A stretch of DNA of 52,795 nucleotides from Lachnospiraceae bacterium (GTDB taxonomy: Bacteria > Bacillota > Clostridia > Lachnospirales > Lachnospiraceae), in assembly GCA_017442585.1 (NCBI GenBank), contig JAFRZM010000023.1, positions 1 through 52,795 of the forward strand, in the 5' to 3' direction. A program made the position numbers and the translations under genes. Within the stretch, counting starts at the first letter, position 1, and every line of letters begins with the position of its first letter. This document shows positions 209 to 10,031 of this stretch, in pieces. Under the pieces are notes generated by a model that had not been told where the DNA came from, did no database searches, and was given only the letters and a program-made list of their open reading frames with translations.

Positions 209-1177
209 TTATATCTTATGATCAGAACCAAGTACGTTTACAATCTTGCGTGCAACCATATCCTTTACAGCCTGACGAGCCGGCTTTAAGTACTGGCGAG
301 GATCGAAGTGATCAGGATGCTCTGCGAAGTACTTTCTGATGTTACCAGTCATTGCAAGACGGATATCTGAGTCGATATTGATCTTACATACGGCAAGCTT
401 AGCAGCTTTACGAAGCTGATCTTCAGGAATACCGATAGCATCAGGCATGTTGCCGCCGTAGGTATTAATCATATCTACGAATTCACGCGGAACTGATGAA
501 GAACCGTGTAATACAATCGGGAATCCAGGTAATCTCTTAATGCATTCTTCAAGTACGTCGAAACGAAGTGACGGAGGAACTAAGATACCGTCCGCATTTC
601 TTGTGCACTGCTCAGGACGGAACTTGTAAGCACCGTGAGAAGTACCGATAGCGATAGCAAGTGAATCGCAACCGGTCTTATCAACGAATTCCTCAACTTC
701 TTCAGGACGAGTATAGCTTGCGCAACCTGCTTCAACCTTAACTTCGTCTTCAACACCCTCTAAGGTACCAAGCTCAGCCTCTACAACGACACCCTTGTCA
801 TGAGCATATTCAACAACCTGACGTGTAAGAGCGATATTCTCTTCGAAAGGCTTTGAAGAAGCGTCAATCATAACTGAGGTAAAACCGCCGTCGATGCAGG
901 ATTTACAAAGTTCAAATGAATCACCGTGATCTAAGTGAAGAGCAATCGGAATATCCGGATGCTCGATAACTGCAGCTTCAACTAATTTTACAAGGTATGT
1001 GTGGTTAGCGTAAGCACGTGCACCCTTACTTACCTGGAGGATAACAGGGCTCTTTAATTCATCAACAGCCTCTGTGATACCCTGGATGATCTCCATGTTG
1101 TTAACGTTAAAAGCACCGATGGCATAACCGCCGTCATATGCCTTCTTAAACATTTCTTTCGTGGTTACTAATGGCAT
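209..1177 (-). CDS. fba: Class II fructose-1,6-bisphosphate aldolase
   Basis: Cytoplasmic zinc enzyme that cleaves fructose 1,6-bisphosphate to dihydroxyacetone phosphate and glyceraldehyde 3-phosphate in glycolysis, and runs in reverse in gluconeogenesis. The 322-residue product has the family landmarks: H-L-D-H-G at residues 81-85 (catalytic Asp83, zinc ligand His84), Glu135 in the E-A-E-L-G segment, G-T-S-H-G around His181, L-H-G-S-S around His224 and the phosphate-binding N-I-D-S-D at 267-271. The start is fixed by a GAAGGAGG ribosome binding site just upstream on the minus strand. It is monocistronic, with its own strong promoter (1217-1245) and a shared terminator downstream. The length and motifs are normal for the clostridial form. 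Confidence 0.96.
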   Translation of the reverse strand: MPLVTTKEMFKKAYDGGYAIGAFNVNNMEIIQGITEAVDELKSPVILQVSKGARAYANHTYLVKLVEAAVIEHPDIPIALHLDHGDSFELCKSCIDGGFTSVMIDASSKPFEENIALTRQVVEYAHDKGVVVEAELGTLEGVEDEVKVEAGCASYTRPEEVEEFVDKTGCDSLAIAIGTSHGAYKFRPEQCTRNADGILVPPSLRFDVLEECIKRLPGFPIVLHGSSSVPREFVDMINTYGGNMPDAIGIPEDQLRKAAKLAVCKINIDSDIRLAMTGNIRKYFAEHPDHFDPRQYLKPARQAVKDMVARKIVNVLGSDHKI

Positions 1178-1289: not shown

Positions 1290-1318
1290 TTGAAAAAGAA
1301 ATGAGCCTATAATATAAT
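1290..1318 (+). promoter_or_regulatory. Sigma-A promoter of the GtrA-aminotransferase-aldolase-kinase unit
   Basis: TTGAAA (1290-1295) and a consensus TATAAT (1313-1318) lie 17 bases apart. The predicted start site leaves a leader of about 85 bases before the GtrA-like gene. No further good promoter was seen inside the unit, so this one probably drives all five genes. Confidence 0.75.
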
Positions 1319-1411
1319 CAAATTAAGTGAACCACCGTTCACGAGCGCAAGTAAAAGCGCAAGGAAAAGGTTTATGTTTCTTAGTTGTTTTAAGAAGGGG
1401 TTTATACGGTA

Positions 1412-1882
1412 ATGGGCGATAAAGAAAAGAAAAAAGAGTTTCTTAGAACTATCAAATTTGCATTATTTTCGGTGAGTGCGGGAATTATCCAGGCGGTATC
1501 TTTTACCTTACTAAATGAATTTACGAATTTTAAATACTGGATTTGCTATTTAACTGCACTTGTTCTTTCAGTATTATGGAATTTTACCTTAAACAGGAAG
1601 TTTACATTTAAATCTGCCAATAACGTTCCGATAGCGATGCTTAAGGTTGCTGCATACTATGCGGTATTTACACCGGCAACGACGTTACTTGGAACGTATC
1701 TCGTAGATACGGTCGGGTGGAATGAATATTTGGTTACAGGATTAAATATGCTCCTTAATTTTACAACGGAGTATTTATATGATAGGTTCTTCGTATTCGG
1801 CAAGTCACTTGATACAAACGATCTTGCGAAGAAAGAAGAGGCCAAAGCGCTTGAAAAAGAAAATAACATAAAAAATGAATAG
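1412..1882 (+). CDS. GtrA-like integral membrane protein
   Basis: A 156-residue protein with four hydrophobic segments (roughly residues 13-35, 41-60, 75-95 and 103-120) and the motif W-N-F-T-L-N-R-K-F-T-F at about 56-66, typical of the GtrA/DPMS-associated membrane family. Relatives are thought to help move polyprenyl-linked sugars across the membrane or to assist a glycosyltransferase. No glycosyltransferase is adjacent here, so the substrate is unknown. The C-terminus is a charged, Lys/Glu-rich tail. A leader with AAGGGG precedes the ATG. It is the first gene of a co-directional run with an aminotransferase 50 bases downstream, so its job may be tied to that cluster. Confidence 0.85.
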   Translation: MGDKEKKKEFLRTIKFALFSVSAGIIQAVSFTLLNEFTNFKYWICYLTALVLSVLWNFTLNRKFTFKSANNVPIAMLKVAAYYAVFTPATTLLGTYLVDTVGWNEYLVTGLNMLLNFTTEYLYDRFFVFGKSLDTNDLAKKEEAKALEKENNIKNE

Positions 1883-1932
1883 TATCATTTGAAATTATAG
1901 GAATACAAAATAAGAAACAGGGGGAATTAACT

Positions 1933-3426
1933 ATGGCATACAACGGATTTGCAATTGATGAATATGTAGACGCTGCGAAGGTCACAAGAGAGCTCGATGA
2001 ACTAATTAAAAAGCCGGTTTATACAATAAAGCCGGAGGAACTTAAAAAATACGAAGAGGAGTATTTTGAGAAAAAGTGCAAGACTTCAAAAGAGATGATT
2101 ACGGAAGCTAAAAATGTTATTCCCGGAGGAGTTCAGCATAATCTCGCATTTAACTATCCGTTTCCGTTAGTTATTACAAAGGCGCAGGGTGCAAAGCTTT
2201 ACGATATCGACGGAAACGAATACTATGATCTTTTGCAGGCAGGTGGACCTACCGTACTTGGAAGTAACCCTGAAGTTGTAAGAAATCAGGTAATAGATCT
2301 TCTTAACACATGCGGACCATCAACGGGACTTTTCCATGAATTCGAATACAAGCTTGCAAAGAAGATTTCTGACAGCGTACCGTCTGTAGAGATGTTCAGA
2401 ATGCTTGGATCGGGAACAGAGGCCTGCATGGTTGCGGCAAGAATCGCAAGACTTAAAACAGGTCATAAGAACATCTTAAAGATGGGTGGCGCATATCACG
2501 GATGGTCAGACCAGCTTGCATACGGTATAAGAATCCCGGGAACAAAGGGATTGCAGAGTAAGGGTGTACCGAATTTTGTATTTAAGCATACGGATGAGTT
2601 TTTCCCTAATGATTTACACGATTTAGAGAAGAAATTAAGAAGAAACAAGCTTCGCGGCGGAACGGCAGCAGTATATTTAGAGCCTGTAGGACCGGAGTCC
2701 GGAACACGTCCCGTATCAAAGGAGTTTGTAAGAGGCGCTGCGGAACTTGCGCATAAATATGGAGCGCTTATAATTTTTGACGAGGTAGTTACAGGATTTA
2801 GAATCGGTATGAGCGGTGCACAAGGGTACTTTGGAGTAGATCCTGACCTTACTGTATTCGGTAAGGTTATAGCAGGAGGGTATCCGGGAGCAGGCGGTAT
2901 CGGCGGACATAAGGACTGCATGGCACATATGGGTGCGGGTCTTGATGCTTCAGGTAAGAAGATTTCCAAAGCGCTCTGCGGCGGAACAATGGCAGCAACT
3001 CCAATCTCATGTGTTGCAGGTTATTACACACTTTGTGAGATTGAAAAGCAGAATGCCTGTGAAAAGGCAGGAAGAATGGGCGATCGCTTGACTAAGGGAT
3101 TGCAGGAGATAATAAAGAAATACAATCTTCCGTTTGTCGCATTTAACCAGGGCTCAATATGTCATCTTGATAATGCGGGAACGATGCATTTCTTCATTGA
3201 TTGGCATAAGCTTTGGAAAGTGCCGGAGGTTTTGAAACAGACTGACATCAGAAGAAAAGAAATGGAACATATCGGTGCTGCTTATACTGCTGAAGGTATA
3301 ATCACACTTGCAGGTACAAGACTCTATACGTCTGCAGCGTATGACGAAGCAATGATAGATGATGTGCTTTCGAGATTCGATAAAGTGCTTTCGAAGGTTG
3401 ATGTGATGCCAGTAGAGAGTAAGTAA
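1933..3426 (+). CDS. Class III PLP-dependent aminotransferase (glutamate-1-semialdehyde aminomutase-like)
   Basis: A cytoplasmic fold-type I pyridoxal phosphate enzyme of 497 residues. Visible landmarks are G-S-G-T-E-A (159-164, phosphate contact), A-Y-H-G (187-190), F-D-E-V-V-T-G-F-R (282-290, with Asp283 expected to bind the pyridine nitrogen) and F-G-K at 309-311, where Lys311 should form the Schiff base. The G-S-G-T-E-A and Y-H-G pair and the overall order resemble glutamate-1-semialdehyde aminomutase (HemL). However, the protein is about 65 residues longer, with an N-terminal extension, and its neighbours are sugar enzymes, not tetrapyrrole genes. I infer an aminotransferase or aminomutase on a sugar-derived aldehyde or ketone. 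The true substrate is unknown. A GGGGGA ribosome binding site precedes the ATG. Confidence 0.88.
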   Translation: MAYNGFAIDEYVDAAKVTRELDELIKKPVYTIKPEELKKYEEEYFEKKCKTSKEMITEAKNVIPGGVQHNLAFNYPFPLVITKAQGAKLYDIDGNEYYDLLQAGGPTVLGSNPEVVRNQVIDLLNTCGPSTGLFHEFEYKLAKKISDSVPSVEMFRMLGSGTEACMVAARIARLKTGHKNILKMGGAYHGWSDQLAYGIRIPGTKGLQSKGVPNFVFKHTDEFFPNDLHDLEKKLRRNKLRGGTAAVYLEPVGPESGTRPVSKEFVRGAAELAHKYGALIIFDEVVTGFRIGMSGAQGYFGVDPDLTVFGKVIAGGYPGAGGIGGHKDCMAHMGAGLDASGKKISKALCGGTMAATPISCVAGYYTLCEIEKQNACEKAGRMGDRLTKGLQEIIKKYNLPFVAFNQGSICHLDNAGTMHFFIDWHKLWKVPEVLKQTDIRRKEMEHIGAAYTAEGIITLAGTRLYTSAAYDEAMIDDVLSRFDKVLSKVDVMPVESK

Positions 3427-3452
3427 CAGGTTTTAAATATCGGAGTGGTAAT

Positions 3453-4493
3453 ATGTACGAGGAAAGCGTAGCAAGGAAAATATTGGTAGAAGCGGGACAT
3501 GAGCTTTTAAAGAACGGGCTTGTCGCAAGAACGTGGGGCAATATAAGCGCAAGGATAAGCGACGAGGAGTTTCTTATTACTCCAAGCGGTATATCTTATG
3601 AGCGATTAACGCCTGAAATGTTGGTGAAAGTTAGAATTAGTGATCTTAAATATGACTCAGACCTTAAACCTTCATCGGAAAAGGGTATACATGCCGCTGC
3701 ATACAAATTGCAGAAGGATACAAATTTTATAATACATACACATCAGACTTTCGCGACGGCAGTGAGTATAACAGGGCGCGCGATTAAGGTAAAAGGACCG
3801 TTACAGGAGGTGTTGGGAGAGCTTGTTCCTGTTGCCGAATACGGAATGCCTTCAACCGAAAAACTTAAAGAAAATGTTAAGACGACACTTTTGAGAAATC
3901 CGGGACTTCGCGCGAGTCTTCTTATAAACCATGGTGCGGTATGCTTCGGGCATGATATGGAAAATGCGTTTGACATAGCAAAAAGCCTTGAATATCTTGC
4001 CAAGAACGAATTTGATAATAAGGTTACGCTGTCGGATGAAGCGGGAAGATTTAATGCGAATGTTGAGGCTGTGGTTAAAAGCCTTTTTGAAGGAAAGACA
4101 ATCCGCATGATAACTGACCCTGTAGTTTTGCAGGCTGCAAACAGTGATGCATATAATTACAGGCTATTGGATGATTTTATACAGATTGCGGGCACAAGTA
4201 TTAAGACGATAGATTTTGCACATCTTGAAATCGGAAATAAAGATGACAGAAGACAGGGCATTTCCAGGATAAAGCACGCATTAAGGAAACGTAATGCAGC
4301 GTTTGTAAGAAAAAGCGGAGCTATTGTAGTAGCGCCAAATGAAGACGAGGCAGATGCGATAGAAATGATTTTGAAAAAGTATGCGCTTACAAAGCTTTAT
4401 GCGGAAAAATGTCATGCGGTGCATAAATTGGAATTTATAGACGCGTTTATTCAAAGATTGGTATATCTTAAGAAGTATTCAAAGAAGGCGTGA
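3453..4493 (+). CDS. Class II aldolase/adducin-family protein with an extra C-terminal domain
   Basis: Residues 1-200 form a class II aldolase domain like L-fuculose-1-phosphate aldolase or ribulose-5-phosphate 4-epimerase: T-W-G-N-I-S (27-32), T-P-S-G (43-46), S-S-E at 74-76 (likely catalytic Glu76), zinc ligands His95 and His97 in H-T-H, and the third ligand His160 in N-H-G-A. The family is normally about 210-230 residues; this protein has 346. Residues 215-346 (with I-K-H-A-L, F-V-R-K-S-G-A-I-V-V-A) look like a second, degenerate copy of the fold without the HxH metal site. That reading is from pattern only. The reaction is probably retro-aldol cleavage of a sugar 1-phosphate, which would follow the kinase downstream. 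TetR starts 3 bases after the stop. Confidence 0.85.
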   Translation: MYEESVARKILVEAGHELLKNGLVARTWGNISARISDEEFLITPSGISYERLTPEMLVKVRISDLKYDSDLKPSSEKGIHAAAYKLQKDTNFIIHTHQTFATAVSITGRAIKVKGPLQEVLGELVPVAEYGMPSTEKLKENVKTTLLRNPGLRASLLINHGAVCFGHDMENAFDIAKSLEYLAKNEFDNKVTLSDEAGRFNANVEAVVKSLFEGKTIRMITDPVVLQAANSDAYNYRLLDDFIQIAGTSIKTIDFAHLEIGNKDDRRQGISRIKHALRKRNAAFVRKSGAIVVAPNEDEADAIEMILKKYALTKLYAEKCHAVHKLEFIDAFIQRLVYLKKYSKKA

Positions 4494-4496
4494 TAA

Positions 4497-5123
4497 ATGT
4501 TAAAGAAACTTACCAGCGAGCAACAAGAATGTATAATCGAAGCCGGAATAGAGGAATTCGCAGATCGCGGTTTTGAAAAGGCATCGATAAAGAATATCGC
4601 AAAAAACGCGGGAATAAGTGTCGGAGTTTTATATAAGTATTATAAAAACAAAGACGATTTCTTTAACGCATGTCTTGAAGAAAGCCTTAAAGTTTTGATA
4701 GGCAAGCTTGAGGAATTCTTAGAAGGAGATATGACGCCGAGAGAACGCGTAAAGAAGATTTTTACGGCGGTCATAGAGTTTTCGCATGAGCATCCAAAGG
4801 CAGTTAAGATGTATCATGAGATAACTTCCGGATCTTTTTCGCCAAAGGCCAGAGAACTTGCGAAAAGGATAGAGGAGATTTCATCGGATACATATCGTGC
4901 GTATATGAAGGCACTTAAGGAAGTGGGACTTTTGCGTCCGGGCGTCGATGAGAAGGCCGCGGCCTTTTTCTTTGATAATCTTCTTGTCATAATGCAGTTT
5001 TCATACAGTGTCGATTATTTTGACGAGAGAAGAAAGATATACTTAAGCGACCTTTATGACGATGATGAGGCGCTTATAGAACAGATGGTGACGCTTGTTG
5101 ACGGCGCACTTCTCGGGAGGTAG
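4497..5123 (+). CDS. TetR/AcrR-family transcriptional regulator
   Basis: A 208-residue protein whose first 50 residues match the TetR DNA-binding domain: G-I-E-E-F-A-D-R-G-F, then K-A-S-I-K-N-I-A-K-N-A-G-I-S and G-V-L-Y-K-Y-Y-K-N-K. The rest is helical and variable, as expected for the ligand-binding and dimer part. It lies inside the operon, three bases after the aldolase stop and three before the kinase start. It therefore probably senses a substrate or intermediate of this pathway and represses its own operon. No clear palindromic operator was identified near the 1290 promoter. Confidence 0.9.
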   Translation: MLKKLTSEQQECIIEAGIEEFADRGFEKASIKNIAKNAGISVGVLYKYYKNKDDFFNACLEESLKVLIGKLEEFLEGDMTPRERVKKIFTAVIEFSHEHPKAVKMYHEITSGSFSPKARELAKRIEEISSDTYRAYMKALKEVGLLRPGVDEKAAAFFFDNLLVIMQFSYSVDYFDERRKIYLSDLYDDDEALIEQMVTLVDGALLGR

Positions 5124-5126
5124 ATT

Positions 5127-6666
5127 ATGGCATATGTCATAGCTTATGATATAGGAACAACGGGTGTTAAGACATGCCTTTATGATGTCAGGGATAAGGT
5201 AACTCTTGTTTGTGCAAAAAAAAGCGGAGTATAACCTTTATATACTTGATAACGGTGGCGCGGAGCAGGATCCCGAAGAGTGGTGGGATGCGATGTGCAC
5301 CACTACGAAAGAAGTTTTATCGACTACAAAGATAAATGCCAATGATATAAAAGGTATATCGTTTTGCACGCAGATGCAGGGACTTATTCTCGTAGATAAA
5401 GAAGGCCGTCACCTTCGTCGTGCAATGAGTTACATGGATCAGCGCGCAACGAAAGAGATTAAAGAAGGCATTGATTACGGAATTACAGTTGCAGGAATAA
5501 ATGCGAGAAAGCTTATAACAAGTCTTCGCCTTACGGGTGCCGTTTCATCTTCCGTAAAAGATCCTGTGTGGAAGTACAAGTGGGTTGAGCGTAATGAGAA
5601 AGATGTATTTAAAAGAGTATATAAATGGCTTGATGTTAAGGAATATCTCTTACTTCGTACGACGGGCGAGTTCGTTATGACCGAAGATTCTGCGTATTCG
5701 ACATTTCTTTATGCTTCTAAAGGAGGCAAAAGAGGCTGGAGCGATACGCTATGCTCTCTTTACGGTGTAAATAAAGATCATCTTCCGCGTCTTGTGAAAA
5801 CCACCGATATGGTAGGCGGTCTTACGAAAAAAGCCGCTGAGGAACTTGGACTTGCGGAAGATACCCCTGTTTTCGGTGGCGGCGGAGACGCCACACTTAT
5901 AGGCGTCGGAGCAGGTTGTGTAAAGCCTGGACAGACTCATATTTACTGGGGCACAAGCGGATGGGTAAGTACAATTGTTGAAAAGCAGATAGTTGATATA
6001 AATTCTATGATAGCTGCGATTGTCGGTGCGGAAGACGGCAAGTATAATTACTTTGCAGAGATGGAAACCGCAGGCAAGTCTATGGAATGGGTGAAAAATA
6101 ATGTCGCAACTGTTGAACGGTTTGAAGAAATGATCGATATGGCAACGAAGTCTGCTCCGGGTGCGAACGGTGTGCTTTTTGCACCGTGGTTACACGGTAA
6201 CAGATGCCCGTTTGAAGATCCAAATGCGTATGGTTTATTCTATAACTTAAAGATAGAAACGACAAAGAATGACATGATTCGAGCTGCTATAGAGGGAATT
6301 TGCTTCCATCTTCGCTGGATGCTGGAATGTCAGGACAAAAAGATAAAGACATCGGATGCTGTGCGATTTGTCGGCGGTGGTGCGATTTCGGAAGAGATAT
6401 GTCAGATACTTGCGGATATCTTGGGAAGAAAAGTTGAAACCGTGAAAGACCCAAGAAACGTCGGAGCAGTAGGCGCTGCAATGATAGTGGGTGTAGGATT
6501 AAAGAAGATTGATTCGCTATCTGATGTCGGGCAGTTTCTCCCTATAGAGCGGACTTTCATACCGAATCTTGATAATAAAGATGTTTATGATAAAAACTTT
6601 AGGGCGTTTAAGATGCTCTATCATGAAAATAAAAAGATATTTAAGCGATTTAATTCACATAGGTAA
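5127..6666 (+). CDS. FGGY-family carbohydrate kinase, frame broken at an A8 tract
   Basis: ATP-dependent sugar kinase of the FGGY (xylulokinase/fuculokinase/gluconokinase) family, cytoplasmic. The natural start is the ATG at 5127, behind GGGAGG. It encodes the essential phosphate-binding D-I-G-T-T motif at residues 8-12. That frame stops at 5232-5234. The rest of the kinase (486 codons, with D-P-E-E-W-W, G-G-G-G-D-A and G-A-V-G-A-A motifs) is in the +1 frame and runs to 6666. The two frames meet at eight A residues, 5216-5223; with seven A the protein would be continuous. A TTG at 5206 would open the downstream frame but would lose the D-I-G-T-T motif. Causes could be assembly error, transcriptional slippage or a phase-variable or inactivated gene. 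It pairs with the upstream aldolase as a kinase-aldolase pathway. Confidence 0.85.
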
Positions 6667-6670
6667 TTTA

Positions 6671-6709
6671 AAGAGGCCATTTAGACAGTTAAGGGGCCTC
6701 TTATTTTTG
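6671..6709 (+). terminator. Intrinsic terminator after the kinase
   Basis: AAGAGGCC (6671-6678) pairs with GGCCTCTT (6695-6702), followed by TATTTTTGT. It closes the five-gene unit. Confidence 0.85.
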
Positions 6710-6827: not shown

Positions 6828-9800
6828 ATGGCAAGGAATCTGTCAAGAAAAGTAACCGCAGTATTACTTACTTTAAGTATGATACTTTCACTTTTACTCA
6901 CACCGGGATTTGCAAAAGAAGTATCCGCTGTGGGAAAGGCAATGATCGTAAGATTTGAAACGCAGGTTTCAAATGGAAACACTTTAGTTTGGGTAGATGG
7001 TTTTACACCGAAAGAAGTGTTAAGCGATGTTTCGCGTGTCAGAGTATCAAGTACGACGATAAACGGAACGCAGGTACCGATAATCGAAGGTACCGATGAA
7101 ATCGTATTTTATAACGGTGAGTATTGGATGGATCCGGATGAACCGATTTATCCGCGTACACCGTATATGATAATGTATAGGTTCAAGGTTGCGGATCCGT
7201 CGATTTTTTATGGAGTTACGTCATTTCAGTTTTACCTCGGAGGTACTGCATATAATGAGTCAGGCTATGCATGGGCAGAGGCACGTGTAGAGGGTAATAT
7301 GATAACCCTTACCGCACAGACAATGTCATACAGCCTTGAGATATCCCAGGAAGCAGTATCTGCAATAGATTATGATATTACATATGGAGAAACACTTCCT
7401 ACGAAAGTTAAGCTTCTTAACGGATCACCGTATACTGCAGGTACCGCGAGATGGAGTTATTGTGACTACAATACAATAACGAATGTTACAAAAGCAAATC
7501 GCGGAGCCGACGGTGTCAATACCTATTATATGTTGGAAGTTATATTGCAGTCCAAGAACCAGTTTATATTTAACACGGGACTCAATTTCTATAGCATGGA
7601 CTATCCTGATGGCAGAAGACTTTTTGTTGAAGTTATGGACAAAGGTAAGTCCGCAAAGGTTATAATCGAAGGAATAGTTCCAAGAGAGCCGGAAGTTAAT
7701 ACTATGGCTATAAAGGAAATTACGATGTCTACACAGATGTCGTTTGGAACAAACGAAGCGAATCTTGCGGTAGACGTTATAGCCAAACTTCCTAAGAGCA
7801 TTAAGATAACGCTTGAAGGCAGCGATACACCGATAAATCTTCCGTTAGTGTTTGAAGAGCAACGTGAAATAAAATGGTATGTGTACGAATTGGTGAGCGG
7901 AGCCCTCGTTGAAGAAGGCGATGCATTGGAAAAGGGCGATGATAAAAAGTACGTTGCTTATTATCCGATGGCAGGAATAGAGCAGTCCTTGGAAGAAGCG
8001 GGATATACGGATTCTTATGGACTTTTCGATGTTTATCAATATGACGGTGATTTTGAACATCAGGGTGGATATTCAATTATATTCAGCGTAAGACCGCAGC
8101 ATCCGACGACAAGCCAGCCGCAGAATGCATTTGCAGCAACGGATGCCCCTGTATTTACTTTTACAAATCAAGGTGGATATTGCATGTATTCTGTTTCGGG
8201 ATATGCGCCGTACTCATGTAAGTGCGTGGCAAATCTCGAGGCGTTTATACCGGGACAGACCGATATAACATGTTTCCCGCCTACTCCTTGCTCAATGGGA
8301 CAGTGTGGAGATACAATCGGCGTATTTAAGGCTATGTCAAAAGGCATTGCGAATCAAAGTGTTGATAGCCCAATAGTATATAGAATGTTTGATCCGGATG
8401 AATTCAGAATGAGCAAGATGCAAAACGGTGTAGTATCCGTATCCTTGCAGAAGCCTGAAACAGACGCGATAGCGACAAAAGAAGCATATGTTGCAGCAAC
8501 GGGAGATTATGCTGCAGGATTAAATCTTGATATGGTATCTCTTACATGGAGACCGAGACCTATAGCAATAAACTCTGACAGCGAGACATTTGATGCTGAT
8601 ACGGCATATGTTGCAGAGATAAAGATACCTGTAAGAGCAGGATTTACTATTGAAAAGATTCCACAGGTTCGTCTTAACGGTGTGCTTGTGGATGATGTTG
8701 AAGCTAACGGAAATTATCTTGTTATAACATATACCTTCCCGAAGACAGACCCTGAATATTGGATCAATCGTAATGGTGTATGCAATAAGAAGATGTACTT
8801 TACGACTCCGGTACCGTTCATCGGAGCATATATACCTGATCGTGTAGAGTTCTCTGATGGATCCGGACGTATAATCGGTAACCAGCAGATAACATGGTAC
8901 TCGGACACGACAAAGGTAGAAGGCGGCGTATTTAAGAAGGGCGCACGCTATACAATGGTACTTACTGTTGATATGAATGAAGCGGGTGTAATGCATGACC
9001 TTTCAGGTGTTAATAACCTCGTGGGCACTCAGGATTATGTTACGGGAGCGTACGCAAGCGCATCAACCGGGCTTCTTACAATAAACTTCGATTTCGGCGT
9101 ATGTGAGAAGGGTAATGTCGGAACGGTTAATGATTATTCATTTACTATGCCGAACGGTATCAGCGAAGAAGATTTTGAGGCAAGATTGAAGGGACCGCAC
9201 TTTGCTGAAGTTTCAATGAGTGACGGAAGCGTGTCATTATTTGAAATAGAGCCGGGATTTAATGAGAACGGTGTTCAGTATCAGACGATATTCGATCAGT
9301 ATCAGGCAGAGTACTTCGGCGCGTTCCAATATGATAAGGAAGAGAAGACAGAGCAGGTATTTACACTTACCTGTAATGTGGATCTTTCCGATAATGGCGG
9401 AGACAGGGTAACACCGGTAAATGTTACAATAGTAGTATCGGCAGTTATGTGCCATATTACTTTTGATTTAAACGGTGGCGAAAAGAGTTCATCTTTTAAG
9501 GACCAAATTGTAGTGCCGTATGGTAAGGAATTAGGATTTAAATATAAGAAGAGTGATTGTGTACGAGAGGGTTATCTTTTTGCCGGATGGTATACAGATC
9601 CGGTAAAAGGAATAAGAGTTTATTCATCAACTTCTGCAGAAGGCGATGAAACTTTATATGCCCATTGGACGAAGATTACTTTAAAGAAAAGAGTTATTCT
9701 CGGTGCAACGTGTAAAAAGGGCGTTAAGATTGACATCAAAGTAAAGAAACTCAAAGAATATGCTGATGGTGTGGAAATATACTTTACGGCGGTTAACGGA

Positions 9801-10031
9801 GCAATAACAGAAGTATTTGAAGATGGCGATTATACACATTTATCTGATATCAAGGTATTTGATCTTAAGGTAAGTGCCGGTAAGACGGTTAAAGATAAGA
9901 TAACGGTATCCAGACTAAAATCAAAAACCGTTTATTATATAGCAGCAAGACCGTATAAATATGACAGTACCGGCAAGAAAGTATACGGACCTTTAAGTGG
10001 GATAAAGAAAGTAAAGACAAAGAAAAAATAG
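6828..10031 (+). CDS. Large secreted protein with a Listeria-Bacteroides (InlB-type) repeat
   Basis: A 1067-residue exported protein. An N-terminal signal peptide (basic M-A-R-N-L-S-R-K, a hydrophobic stretch, probable cleavage after P-G-F-A near residue 28) precedes a long, mostly beta-type region that I do not recognise. A cysteine-rich patch (C-K-C, C-F-P-P-T-P-C, C-G-D) lies near residues 450-500. Residues about 875-949 form one InlB B-repeat-like domain (F-D-L-N-G-G, then G-Y-L-F-A-G-W-Y-T-D and L-Y-A-H-W). About 950-1067 look like a fibronectin III-type, very lysine-rich end. There is no LPXTG motif and no C-terminal membrane segment. A role in surface binding or the cell envelope is plausible but unproven. 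AGGAGG precedes the ATG. serS starts 23 bases downstream without a terminator between. Confidence 0.8.
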   Translation: MARNLSRKVTAVLLTLSMILSLLLTPGFAKEVSAVGKAMIVRFETQVSNGNTLVWVDGFTPKEVLSDVSRVRVSSTTINGTQVPIIEGTDEIVFYNGEYWMDPDEPIYPRTPYMIMYRFKVADPSIFYGVTSFQFYLGGTAYNESGYAWAEARVEGNMITLTAQTMSYSLEISQEAVSAIDYDITYGETLPTKVKLLNGSPYTAGTARWSYCDYNTITNVTKANRGADGVNTYYMLEVILQSKNQFIFNTGLNFYSMDYPDGRRLFVEVMDKGKSAKVIIEGIVPREPEVNTMAIKEITMSTQMSFGTNEANLAVDVIAKLPKSIKITLEGSDTPINLPLVFEEQREIKWYVYELVSGALVEEGDALEKGDDKKYVAYYPMAGIEQSLEEAGYTDSYGLFDVYQYDGDFEHQGGYSIIFSVRPQHPTTSQPQNAFAATDAPVFTFTNQGGYCMYSVSGYAPYSCKCVANLEAFIPGQTDITCFPPTPCSMGQCGDTIGVFKAMSKGIANQSVDSPIVYRMFDPDEFRMSKMQNGVVSVSLQKPETDAIATKEAYVAATGDYAAGLNLDMVSLTWRPRPIAINSDSETFDADTAYVAEIKIPVRAGFTIEKIPQVRLNGVLVDDVEANGNYLVITYTFPKTDPEYWINRNGVCNKKMYFTTPVPFIGAYIPDRVEFSDGSGRIIGNQQITWYSDTTKVEGGVFKKGARYTMVLTVDMNEAGVMHDLSGVNNLVGTQDYVTGAYASASTGLLTINFDFGVCEKGNVGTVNDYSFTMPNGISEEDFEARLKGPHFAEVSMSDGSVSLFEIEPGFNENGVQYQTIFDQYQAEYFGAFQYDKEEKTEQVFTLTCNVDLSDNGGDRVTPVNVTIVVSAVMCHITFDLNGGEKSSSFKDQIVVPYGKELGFKYKKSDCVREGYLFAGWYTDPVKGIRVYSSTSAEGDETLYAHWTKITLKKRVILGATCKKGVKIDIKVKKLKEYADGVEIYFTAVNGAITEVFEDGDYTHLSDIKVFDLKVSAGKTVKDKITVSRLKSKTVYYIAARPYKYDSTGKKVYGPLSGIKKVKTKKK

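What the first reader, a model, noticed from the sequence alone, without database searches (positions are those of the whole stretch)
1290..6709. Unrecognised catabolic cluster: GtrA protein, class III aminotransferase, two-domain aldolase, TetR and FGGY kinase
One promoter and one terminator enclose five tightly spaced genes. Kinase plus class II aldolase is the core of fuculose, rhamnulose or pentulose breakdown, but here no isomerase or lactaldehyde reductase is present. Instead there is a HemL-like aminotransferase and a GtrA membrane protein. The set could act on an amino-sugar or a nitrogen-containing polyol, or make an unusual amino-sugar. I know of no named pathway with this content.
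Basis: inference. Interest (0 to 1): 0.7.

Follow-up and report, generated by a model that had tools for sequence, protein, structure and literature searches.

The report
Probable sphingoid-base breakdown operon
Five neighbouring genes of a gut bacterium form a self-regulated unit that recurs, shuffled, in many other bacteria, and it probably breaks down an amino-alcohol lipid such as phytosphingosine, a main building block of plant and fungal sphingolipids.

Summary
GtrA, a class III aminotransferase (AT3), a two-domain class II aldolase, TetR and an FGGY kinase form one tight operon (1290-6709). Correction: the kinase starts at 5128 and its frame is broken in an A-run near 5215-5222; relatives are intact there.

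It is a real unit. The gene set recurs in at least four orders. One palindromic operator heads 31 of 42 related operons and occurs once in this genome. AT3 with aldolase and kinase is found in nine phyla, with aldolase-AT3, aldolase-GtrA and aldolase-MFS fusions.

Best reading: breakdown of a 2-amino-1,3,4-triol lipid (phytosphingosine type). AT3 removes the C2 amine, the kinase makes the 1-phosphate, the aldolase releases DHAP and a long aldehyde. Support: a Phycisphaerales operon adds a sphingosine-1-phosphate lyase and a class-3 aldehyde dehydrogenase; 28 of 30 Chloroflexota lyase genes sit beside an FGGY kinase; kinases of both modules interleave in a tree; five relatives carry full-length neutral ceramidases.

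Against: none of 26 Lachnospiraceae cluster genomes has a ceramidase; AT3 and lyase do not co-occur above chance in Chloroflexota; nothing here is biochemical. A polar amino-polyol substrate is not excluded.

The parts
1290..1318 (+). promoter-like site TTGAAA-17-TATAAT
   Evidence: 11 of 12 consensus matches; promoter-like sites in the region are not above chance
1327..1342 (.). palindromic operator GTGAACCACCGTTCAC, probably bound by the operon's TetR
   Evidence: only match of GTGARYNNNNRYTCAC in the window (0.01 expected) and in the genome; at the operon head in 31 of 42 related loci; binding by TetR is inferred
1412..1882 (+). GtrA/DPMS-type membrane protein, probable substrate flippase or membrane anchor
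   Evidence: PF04138 E 6.7e-13; fused to the aldolase in two Treponema loci; never together with the FLVCR-like MFS gene (0 of 86 AT3+aldolase loci)
1933..3426 (+). class III aminotransferase (AT3), proposed C2-aminotransferase of a long-chain base or its 1-phosphate
   Evidence: PF00202; below HemL cut-offs; own subfamily
3453..4493 (+). two-domain class II aldolase: domain 1 (about residues 1-190) metal and phosphate site; domain 2 (about 210-346) degenerate, keeps the Asp loop and the C-terminal Tyr
   Evidence: PF00596; residue comparison with E. coli FucA; 14-sequence alignment
4497..5123 (+). TetR-family regulator
   Evidence: PF00440 E 1.2e-14; member of the set in relatives
5128..6666 (+). 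FGGY kinase, proposed long-chain-base (or deaminated base) 1-kinase; reading frame interrupted near 5215-5222
   Evidence: PF00370/PF02782; frames 5124-5234 and 5203-6666; unbroken in relatives; same-type kinases sit beside S1P lyase
6672..6709 (+). intrinsic terminator-like hairpin and T tract
   Evidence: fold -17.3 kcal/mol, z -2.85

Best explanation
A TetR-controlled operon for breaking down an amphipathic 2-amino-1,3,4-triol, most likely phytosphingosine (the 4-hydroxylated sphingoid base of plants and fungi). SHOWN: the five genes are one conserved unit with its own operator; the aldolase keeps a FucA-type metal and phosphate site in domain 1 while the Asp loop and the C-terminal Tyr lie in domain 2; the kinase belongs to a set of FGGY kinases that also sit beside sphingosine-1-phosphate lyase genes in other bacteria. 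INFERRED: GtrA brings the substrate across or to the membrane. AT3 removes the C2 amine (onto pyruvate or 2-oxoglutarate), before or after the kinase phosphorylates C1. The product is a 1-phospho-2-keto-3,4-diol, in effect a ketose-1-phosphate with an alkyl tail. The aldolase cuts it between C3 and C4 into dihydroxyacetone phosphate and a long aldehyde (C15 from C18 phytosphingosine); where present, a class-3 aldehyde dehydrogenase oxidises the aldehyde to the odd-chain acid. The gain is carbon, and removal of a cationic lipid that kills bacteria. In this genome the kinase frame is interrupted, so the last steps may be off.
For: (1) Unit: the gene set in at least four orders; operator in 31 of 42 loci, 31 of its 32 occurrences in 1.63 Mb; AT3 with aldolase in 86 of 105 loci, with kinase in 71, with both in 69. 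(2) Aldolase-AT3 fusion in 2 Actinomycetota loci, aldolase-GtrA in 2 Treponema loci, MFS-aldolase in 2 loci. (3) Phycisphaerales L125: kinase, S1P lyase (PDB 3mad StSPL, E 1.4e-188), ALDH, AT3, aldolase in a row. (4) In a Chloroflexota class 28 of the 30 best-scoring S1P-lyase loci have an FGGY kinase within about 1.5 kb. (5) Kinase tree: a 40-row clade holds 30 lyase-linked and 10 AT3-linked kinases and is sister (98) to the 38-row clade with the window's kinase; six E. coli FGGY kinases fall outside. Trp at XylB position 258 in 72 of 72 AT3-linked, 30 of 31 lyase-linked and 0 of 6 E. coli kinases. (6) The ALDH of type C operons matches human fatty aldehyde dehydrogenase 4qgk, E 6.6e-104, among class-3 ALDHs. 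(7) Full-length neutral ceramidase in G048, G560, G714, G750, G753 (E 1e-114 or better) and a weaker one in G734, all AT3 genomes. (8) Precedent: the aminotransferase FumI removes the C2 amine of hydrolysed fumonisin B1, a sphingoid analogue (PMC2933618, start of abstract seen).
Against: No enzyme was assayed. The S1P lyase lies in 1 of 105 AT3 neighbourhoods, and across 199 Chloroflexota-class genomes AT3 (9) and lyase (59) coincide in 3, against 2.7 expected. No ceramidase in any of 26 Lachnospiraceae cluster genomes. In the order sample four ceramidase genomes of one genus lack AT3, so the overlap (2 of 392 genomes, p 0.005) is confounded by kinship. ALDH in only 7 of 105 loci and absent from the window. 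FumI is a more distant relative of AT3 (E 7.6e-23) than HemL-type enzymes (9.3e-61). No FGGY kinase is known to me to act on lipids. AT3 also stands with TetR alone, or without a kinase, in several loci. StSPL's natural role is unproven: its authors call it unknown (PMC3148216, passage).
Confidence: 0.42

Rival explanations
1. The same chemistry on a polar, water-soluble substrate: a 2-amino-2-deoxy-alditol or similar amino-polyol is deaminated to a ketose, phosphorylated and cleaved to DHAP and a short hydroxyaldehyde.
For: FGGY kinases and FucA-type aldolases of known function act on sugars; a GPH:cation sugar symporter follows the set in L111; alpha-galactosidase genes lie nearby in L036 and L125; no ceramidase or lyase in the window's relatives.
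Against: S1P lyase and class-3 ALDH in the L125 operon; kinase-lyase pairs; fusion of the aldolase to membrane proteins; no sugar transporter inside the window operon; xylulokinase positions His78 and Asn234 are mostly replaced (His78 in 72 of 72; Asn234 kept in 8 of 72 AT3-linked kinases; the role of these residues is recalled).
Confidence: 0.28
2. A biosynthetic set: the aldolase joins DHAP and an aldehyde, AT3 aminates the product, and GtrA flips a lipid-linked amino-polyol for the cell surface.
For: GtrA proteins are recalled as flippases of polyprenyl-linked sugars; aldol reactions and transaminations are reversible.
Against: Under a TetR-type operator and with a kinase, S1P lyase, ALDH and an importer-like MFS (FLVCR1/2 relatives) in related loci, breakdown fits better; no glycosyltransferase or phosphatase was seen in the set.
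Confidence: 0.12
3. The class II aldolase is a dehydratase like MtnB, and the pathway runs through a 2,3-diketo-1-phosphate, as in methionine salvage, rather than by carbon-carbon cleavage.
For: A RuBisCO-like protein nearest to MtnW lies beside AT3 in L093, L109 and L140, and MtnB is a class II aldolase-family dehydratase acting on a 1-phospho-2-keto-3,4-diol with a thioalkyl tail (recalled).
Against: MtnB model 75.5 bits against a cut-off of 137.05; RuBisCO-like protein in only 3 of 105 loci; FucA-like metal site with an Asp and Tyr pair as recalled for the retro-aldol enzyme AraD.
Confidence: 0.12
4. AT3 is a stray glutamate-1-semialdehyde aminomutase (HemL) and the five genes have no joint role.
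For: Best NCBIfam and PDB matches are HemL enzymes.
Against: Scores far below the HemL cut-offs, replaced substrate-site segments, conserved set, shared operator and fusions.
Confidence: 0.01

Closest known systems
L-fucose / L-rhamnose type ketose-1-phosphate pathways (FucK-FucA, RhaB-RhaD)
   Same: FGGY kinase followed by a class II aldolase with the FucA metal and phosphate residues; DHAP and an aldehyde as expected products
   Different: no isomerase and no lactaldehyde reductase; an aminotransferase in their place; two-domain aldolase with Asp for FucA Tyr113; both enzymes far below the family cut-offs
Sphingosine-1-phosphate lyase route (kinase, S1P lyase, fatty aldehyde dehydrogenase)
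   Same: proposed substrate class, 1-phosphate and long-chain aldehyde; related FGGY kinases beside the lyase; ALDH class 3
   Different: lyase absent from the window cluster; the amine is removed and an aldolase makes the cut, giving DHAP instead of phosphoethanolamine; known sphingosine kinases are not FGGY proteins (recalled)
FumI, aminotransferase of hydrolysed fumonisin B1
   Same: class III aminotransferase acting on the C2 amine of a sphingoid-like chain (PMC2933618, start of abstract)
   Different: only distantly related in sequence (6hbs, E 7.6e-23)
Glutamate-1-semialdehyde aminomutase (HemL)
   Same: closest sequence family and PLP frame
   Different: below both cut-offs; PVR and FEA segments of E. 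coli HemL are replaced
Methionine salvage / 5-deoxyribose disposal (MtnB/MtnW, class II aldolase DHAP shunt)
   Same: 1-phospho-2-keto-3,4-diol with a hydrophobic tail handled by a class II aldolase-family enzyme; a RuBisCO-like protein in 3 relatives
   Different: FGGY kinase instead of MtnK; aminotransferase of another class; MtnB cut-off not reached

Membership tests
Class III aminotransferases | PF00202 domain over its cut-off with PLP lysine | tested here: met
   165.2 bits against 30.5; K311 invariant in 48 sequences
Glutamate-1-semialdehyde aminomutase (HemL) | NCBIfam cut-offs NF000818 (398) and TIGR00713 (527.3) | tested here: not met
   272.9 and 256.2 bits
Glutamate-1-semialdehyde aminomutase (HemL) | substrate-site segments PVR and FEA (their roles are recalled) | tested here: not met
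   replaced in alignment with E. coli HemL
Class II aldolase superfamily | PF00596 domain, Glu and three His of the metal site | tested here: met
   153.6 bits; E76, H95, H97, H160 in domain 1
L-fucose / L-rhamnose catabolism | fuculokinase, rhamnulokinase and FucA family cut-offs | tested here: not met
   kinase (5206-6666) 100.0 of 470.9 and 33.5 of 527.95; aldolase 84.7 of 400.25
L-fucose / L-rhamnose catabolism | isomerase and lactaldehyde reductase in the cluster | tested here: not met
   domains of the cluster genes and of two genes downstream (SerS, DUF4015) and one upstream (FBA)
Xylulokinase | TIGR01312 cut-off | tested here: not met
   299.7 of 380.25 bits, with the ORF lacking the first piece of the gene
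Methylthioribulose-1-phosphate dehydratase (MtnB) | TIGR03328 cut-off | tested here: not met
   75.5 of 137.05 bits
GtrA/DPMS membrane domain | PF04138 over its cut-off | tested here: met
   49.3 of 26.1 bits
Sphingoid-base catabolism | S1P lyase in the same operon | tested here: inconclusive
   not among the window cluster's genes; present in one relative, L125; 1 of 105 neighbourhoods
Sphingoid-base catabolism | source of free base (neutral ceramidase PF04734) in the genome | tested here: not met
   none in G000 or the other 25 Lachnospiraceae cluster genomes; full length in 5 other AT3 genomes of 56 searched
Sphingoid-base catabolism | enzymes act on sphingoid bases | not testable with these tools
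   needs assays
FumI-like sphingoid aminotransferases | removes the C2 amine of a long-chain amino alcohol | not testable with these tools
   sequence relation to 6hbs is weak (E 7.6e-23)

The most novel reading that the evidence does not exclude
Bacteria and perhaps archaea of many phyla hold an undescribed route for sphingoid bases in which FGGY 'sugar' kinases serve as long-chain-base kinases. In one branch the phosphate goes to S1P lyase. In the other a class III aminotransferase and a class II aldolase treat phytosphingosine as if it were a ketose with an alkyl tail, giving DHAP and an odd-chain aldehyde. The aldolase has split its active site between a metal-bearing domain and a degenerate partner domain, and GtrA or an FLVCR-like MFS delivers the lipid.
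Probability: 0.36. Interest if true: 0.86.

Novelty: new variant of a known kind. Interest (0 to 1): 0.7.

Why it matters
Phytosphingosine is the main sphingoid base of plants and kills bacteria at micromolar levels (PMC8776846, abstract). How rumen and gut anaerobes dispose of it is, as far as my searches show, not described. If the reading is right, the cluster gives an aldol-type breakdown route, a first kinase family for long-chain bases in prokaryotes, and a bacterial source of odd-chain C15 fatty acid, a well-known marker of rumen activity (PMC6272531, passages). It would also give a role to bacterial S1P lyases, whose natural function is called unknown (PMC3148216, passage). Even if the substrate is another amino-polyol, a conserved three-enzyme pathway in nine phyla without a name can now be tested with a handful of purified proteins.

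Tried and rejected
HemL housekeeping role: rejected on scores, residues and context.

Fucose, rhamnose or xylulose pathway: rejected; family cut-offs not reached, isomerase absent.

Wider regulon: the operator pattern was sought in 25 whole cluster genomes. 45 forward matches against 26 for the reversed control; 20 of the 45 are the cluster sites, so nothing beyond background was left and I did not follow the rest.

Co-occurrence of AT3 with S1P lyase: tested in 199 genomes of one Chloroflexota class; 3 against 2.7 expected, so no support. Lyase in AT3 genomes: 16 of 50 searched; I did not search the other 30 of the 80 loci, nor the Lachnospiraceae G genomes, for it.

Kinase elsewhere in 27 genomes whose AT3 locus shows no kinase nearby: 20 have an FGGY match at E 1e-70 or better, but only one is close (56%, the genome of L102). 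In G736, G741 and G747 a match is the lyase-linked kinase itself. Some of these loci end at contig ends, so this settles little.

Neutral ceramidase in the order sample: full length in 6 of 392, AT3 in 8 of 392, both in 2 (hypergeometric p 0.005), but 5 of the 6 ceramidase genomes are one genus, so I give it little weight.

First scan of genome contigs with the aldolase found nothing; the second, with an AT3 segment, gave the 80 loci.

Structure models of AT3 and of the aldolase could not be made, so pocket shape and the relative placing of the two aldolase domains are untested.

Dropped before counts: L086 (a distant AT3 paralogue, 43%), L112 (two partial AT3 frames), and L149 (same contig as L035; it was still counted, so 30 of 41 without it). 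In the tree one kinase (L191_7921) bears my label 'SPL' although its contig carries both modules, and 3 of 112 rows were left out for length.


Full report
WHAT IS THERE. The kinase begins at the ATG at 5128, not at the TTG at 5206; its frame is interrupted in an 8-A run near 5215-5222, while the three same-genus relatives compared are open there. I cannot tell assembly error from a real lesion. A -35/-10 site at 1290-1318, a 16-base palindrome at 1327-1342 and a terminator-like hairpin at about 6672-6709 (z -2.85) frame the unit. Promoter-like sites as such are no more frequent than in shuffles.

IT IS A UNIT. Sixty related genomes were searched with the aldolase and the nearest loci read. 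AT3 was then sought in 396 genomes of the family (17 with it) and 392 of the order (8 with it), with a gap in identity between the subfamily (54% or more) and the next protein (43%). The set occurs as GtrA-AT3-aldolase-TetR-kinase (window, G004, G001, and G003 on two contigs), AT3-aldolase-TetR-kinase-GtrA (G296, G367, G244, G339, G193), TetR-kinase-aldolase-GtrA-AT3 (G002, G005, G006, G017, G228, G309, G271, G257, G262, G079, G686) and kinase-aldolase-TetR-AT3 without GtrA (G048). A set kept through such rearrangement is stronger evidence of joint function than fixed order.

OPERATOR. The pattern GTGARYNNNNRYTCAC occurs once in the window (0.01 expected) and once in the genome. Among 42 loci of the window's type, 31 have exactly one, within 184 nt of the start of the nearest cluster gene, whichever gene comes first; these are 31 of all 32 matches in 1,626,249 bases (two of the loci, L035 and L149, are one contig). 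It is most simply the operator of the operon's own TetR (inferred).

SPREAD AND FUSIONS. Their titles name Bacillota, Chloroflexota, Bacteroidota, Hydrogenedentota, Planctomycetota, Verrucomicrobiota, Myxococcota, Actinomycetota, Spirochaetota and a Thorarchaeon. AT3, aldolase and kinase together are seen in nine of these (not in the Thorarchaeon, which has AT3 and a TetR). Of 105 AT3 loci, 86 have an aldolase within 6 kb, 71 an FGGY kinase and 69 both. Single reading frames join aldolase and AT3 (L106, L141, Actinomycetota), aldolase and GtrA (L098, L108, Treponema) and MFS and aldolase (L082, L118). GtrA and the FLVCR-like MFS never occur together: of 86 AT3+aldolase loci 35 have GtrA only, 15 MFS only, 36 neither, 0 both (Fisher p 2.4e-4, not corrected for kinship). 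I read GtrA as doing the work of the transporter. The MFS is closest among solved proteins to FLVCR1 and FLVCR2, choline and ethanolamine carriers (E about 1e-36).

THE ALDOLASE. Against E. coli FucA, domain 1 keeps the phosphate and metal residues (Thr26, Asn29, Ser/Thr43, Gly44, Ser71, Ser72, Glu73, His92, His94, His155 in FucA numbers; roles recalled), but not the residue at Tyr113 nor Tyr209. Domain 2 has lost the three His but keeps an Asp at position 113 (motif LDD(M/F)xQ) and the C-terminal Tyr. Both halves are invariant in 14 two-domain sequences. Nine single-domain relatives keep all the metal residues and the Asp, and seven of nine the Tyr. Several Clostridia carry the two as neighbouring genes, one with the metal site and one without. 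So the enzyme seems to have split one inter-subunit active site over two unlike domains. This is inference until a structure is made; the prediction server stayed busy.

THE SUBSTRATE. Before seeing the wider context I wrote down the chemistry that the three enzymes allow: a 2-amino-1,3,4-triol, deaminated at C2 and phosphorylated at C1, is a ketose-1-phosphate that a FucA-type aldolase can cut into DHAP and an aldehyde; phytosphingosine is the common natural compound of that kind (note). The neighbourhoods then showed, in Phycisphaerales (L125), kinase - S1P lyase (StSPL 3mad, E 1.4e-188) - ALDH - AT3 - aldolase in a row. In four Chloroflexota genomes with an AT3 cluster, an S1P lyase stands elsewhere, next to or one gene from a kinase 57-58% identical to that of L125. 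An Actinomycetota contig (L106 and L191 are parts of it, by genome handle and contig length) has lyase, two FGGY kinases, the MFS, an ALDH-like gene (27% only) and the aldolase-AT3 fusion within about 19 kb. In a sample of 199 genomes of that Chloroflexota class, 28 of the 30 best-scoring lyase loci have an FGGY kinase within about 1.5 kb. In a tree of 109 kinases the two kinds interleave: 40 rows with 30 lyase-linked and 10 AT3-linked form one clade, sister (98) to the 38 rows with the window's kinase, and E. coli XylB, FucK, RhaB, GlpK, LsrK and AraB fall outside. A Trp at XylB position 258 is shared by 72 of 72 and 30 of 31 and by none of the six E. coli kinases. Whether other FGGY families share it was not tested. 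The ALDH found in 7 of 105 loci is of class 3, to which human fatty aldehyde dehydrogenase belongs (4qgk, E 6.6e-104, for the L035 protein). Full-length neutral ceramidases occur in the AT3 genomes G048, G560, G714 (Chengkuizengella), G750 and G753, and a weaker one in G734, of 56 searched.

WHAT SPEAKS AGAINST. No ceramidase was found in any of the 26 Lachnospiraceae cluster genomes; they would have to live on bases freed by others. AT3 and the lyase do not coincide above chance in the Chloroflexota class (3 of 199, 2.7 expected). The ceramidase overlap in the order sample rests on two genomes, one of a genus in which all four other ceramidase carriers lack AT3. Several AT3 loci have no kinase or only a TetR nearby; AT3 alone could serve to defuse a cationic lipid, as FumI does for hydrolysed fumonisin (inferred). 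A RuBisCO-like protein near MtnW beside AT3 in three loci suggests a 1-phospho-2-ketose with a hydrophobic tail, but could also mean dehydratase chemistry.

LITERATURE. Ten searches of an open-licence library gave no paper with this gene set. 'FGGY' and 'sphingosine' share 7 papers, none of which looked relevant by title; I opened none of them. Passages of PMC3148216 say that StSPL cleaves S1P in vitro and that its natural function is unknown. PMC11893366 on Pseudomonas sphBC was searched for aminotransferase, kinase and S1P lyase, with no occurrence. Kondo et al. 2014 on phytosphingosine to odd-numbered fatty acids was seen only as a title in a reference list.

VERDICT. A real, conserved and unnamed catabolic module; substrate proposed, not shown.

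Noticed in passing
window 5128-6666: The kinase's reading frame is interrupted in an 8-A run near 5215-5222; relatives of the same genus are open there. Assembly error, lesion or slippage cannot be told apart here.
   Followed up: partly
window 6828-10031: Large secreted-looking protein (1067 aa, one List_Bact_rpt match) beside the operon in the genus, only 39% identical between species while AT3, SerS and FBA are about 90% or more: a fast-evolving surface protein.
   Followed up: no
window 209-1177: Divergent class II fructose-bisphosphate aldolase directly upstream, kept beside the operon in G004 and G003 (93-94% identical). It shares the intergenic region with the operator.
   Followed up: no
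window 3453-4493 against 1933-3426: Within the genus the aldolase is about 50% identical while its neighbour AT3 is 91-93%: very unequal rates in one operon.
   Followed up: no
L093 1-1062, L109 4057-5400, L140 3-581: RuBisCO-like protein, nearest MtnW but below its cut-off, immediately upstream of AT3.
   Followed up: partly
L107 8275-9579 and eight further loci (L128, L130, L136, L137, L154, L158, L159, L163): A roughly 430-aa membrane protein, divergent and next to AT3 in Clostridia/Christensenellaceae, with no NCBIfam match; looks like a membrane M28-type peptidase (recalled, untested).
   Followed up: no
L088, L089, L094, L100, L101, L115, L119, L126, L145, L151: AT3 without aldolase or kinase in its own strand run, in several beside a TetR, and in L088 followed by a sodium:alanine symporter, which would suit an alanine-forming transaminase.
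   Followed up: partly
L086 (G408:C4): Second, distant AT3 paralogue (43%) beside another FGGY kinase, with no aldolase seen: perhaps a related pathway.
   Followed up: no
L036 11410-12363 (G048): Glycine-betaine-type OpuAC binding protein directly upstream of the kinase-aldolase-TetR-AT3 run.
   Followed up: no
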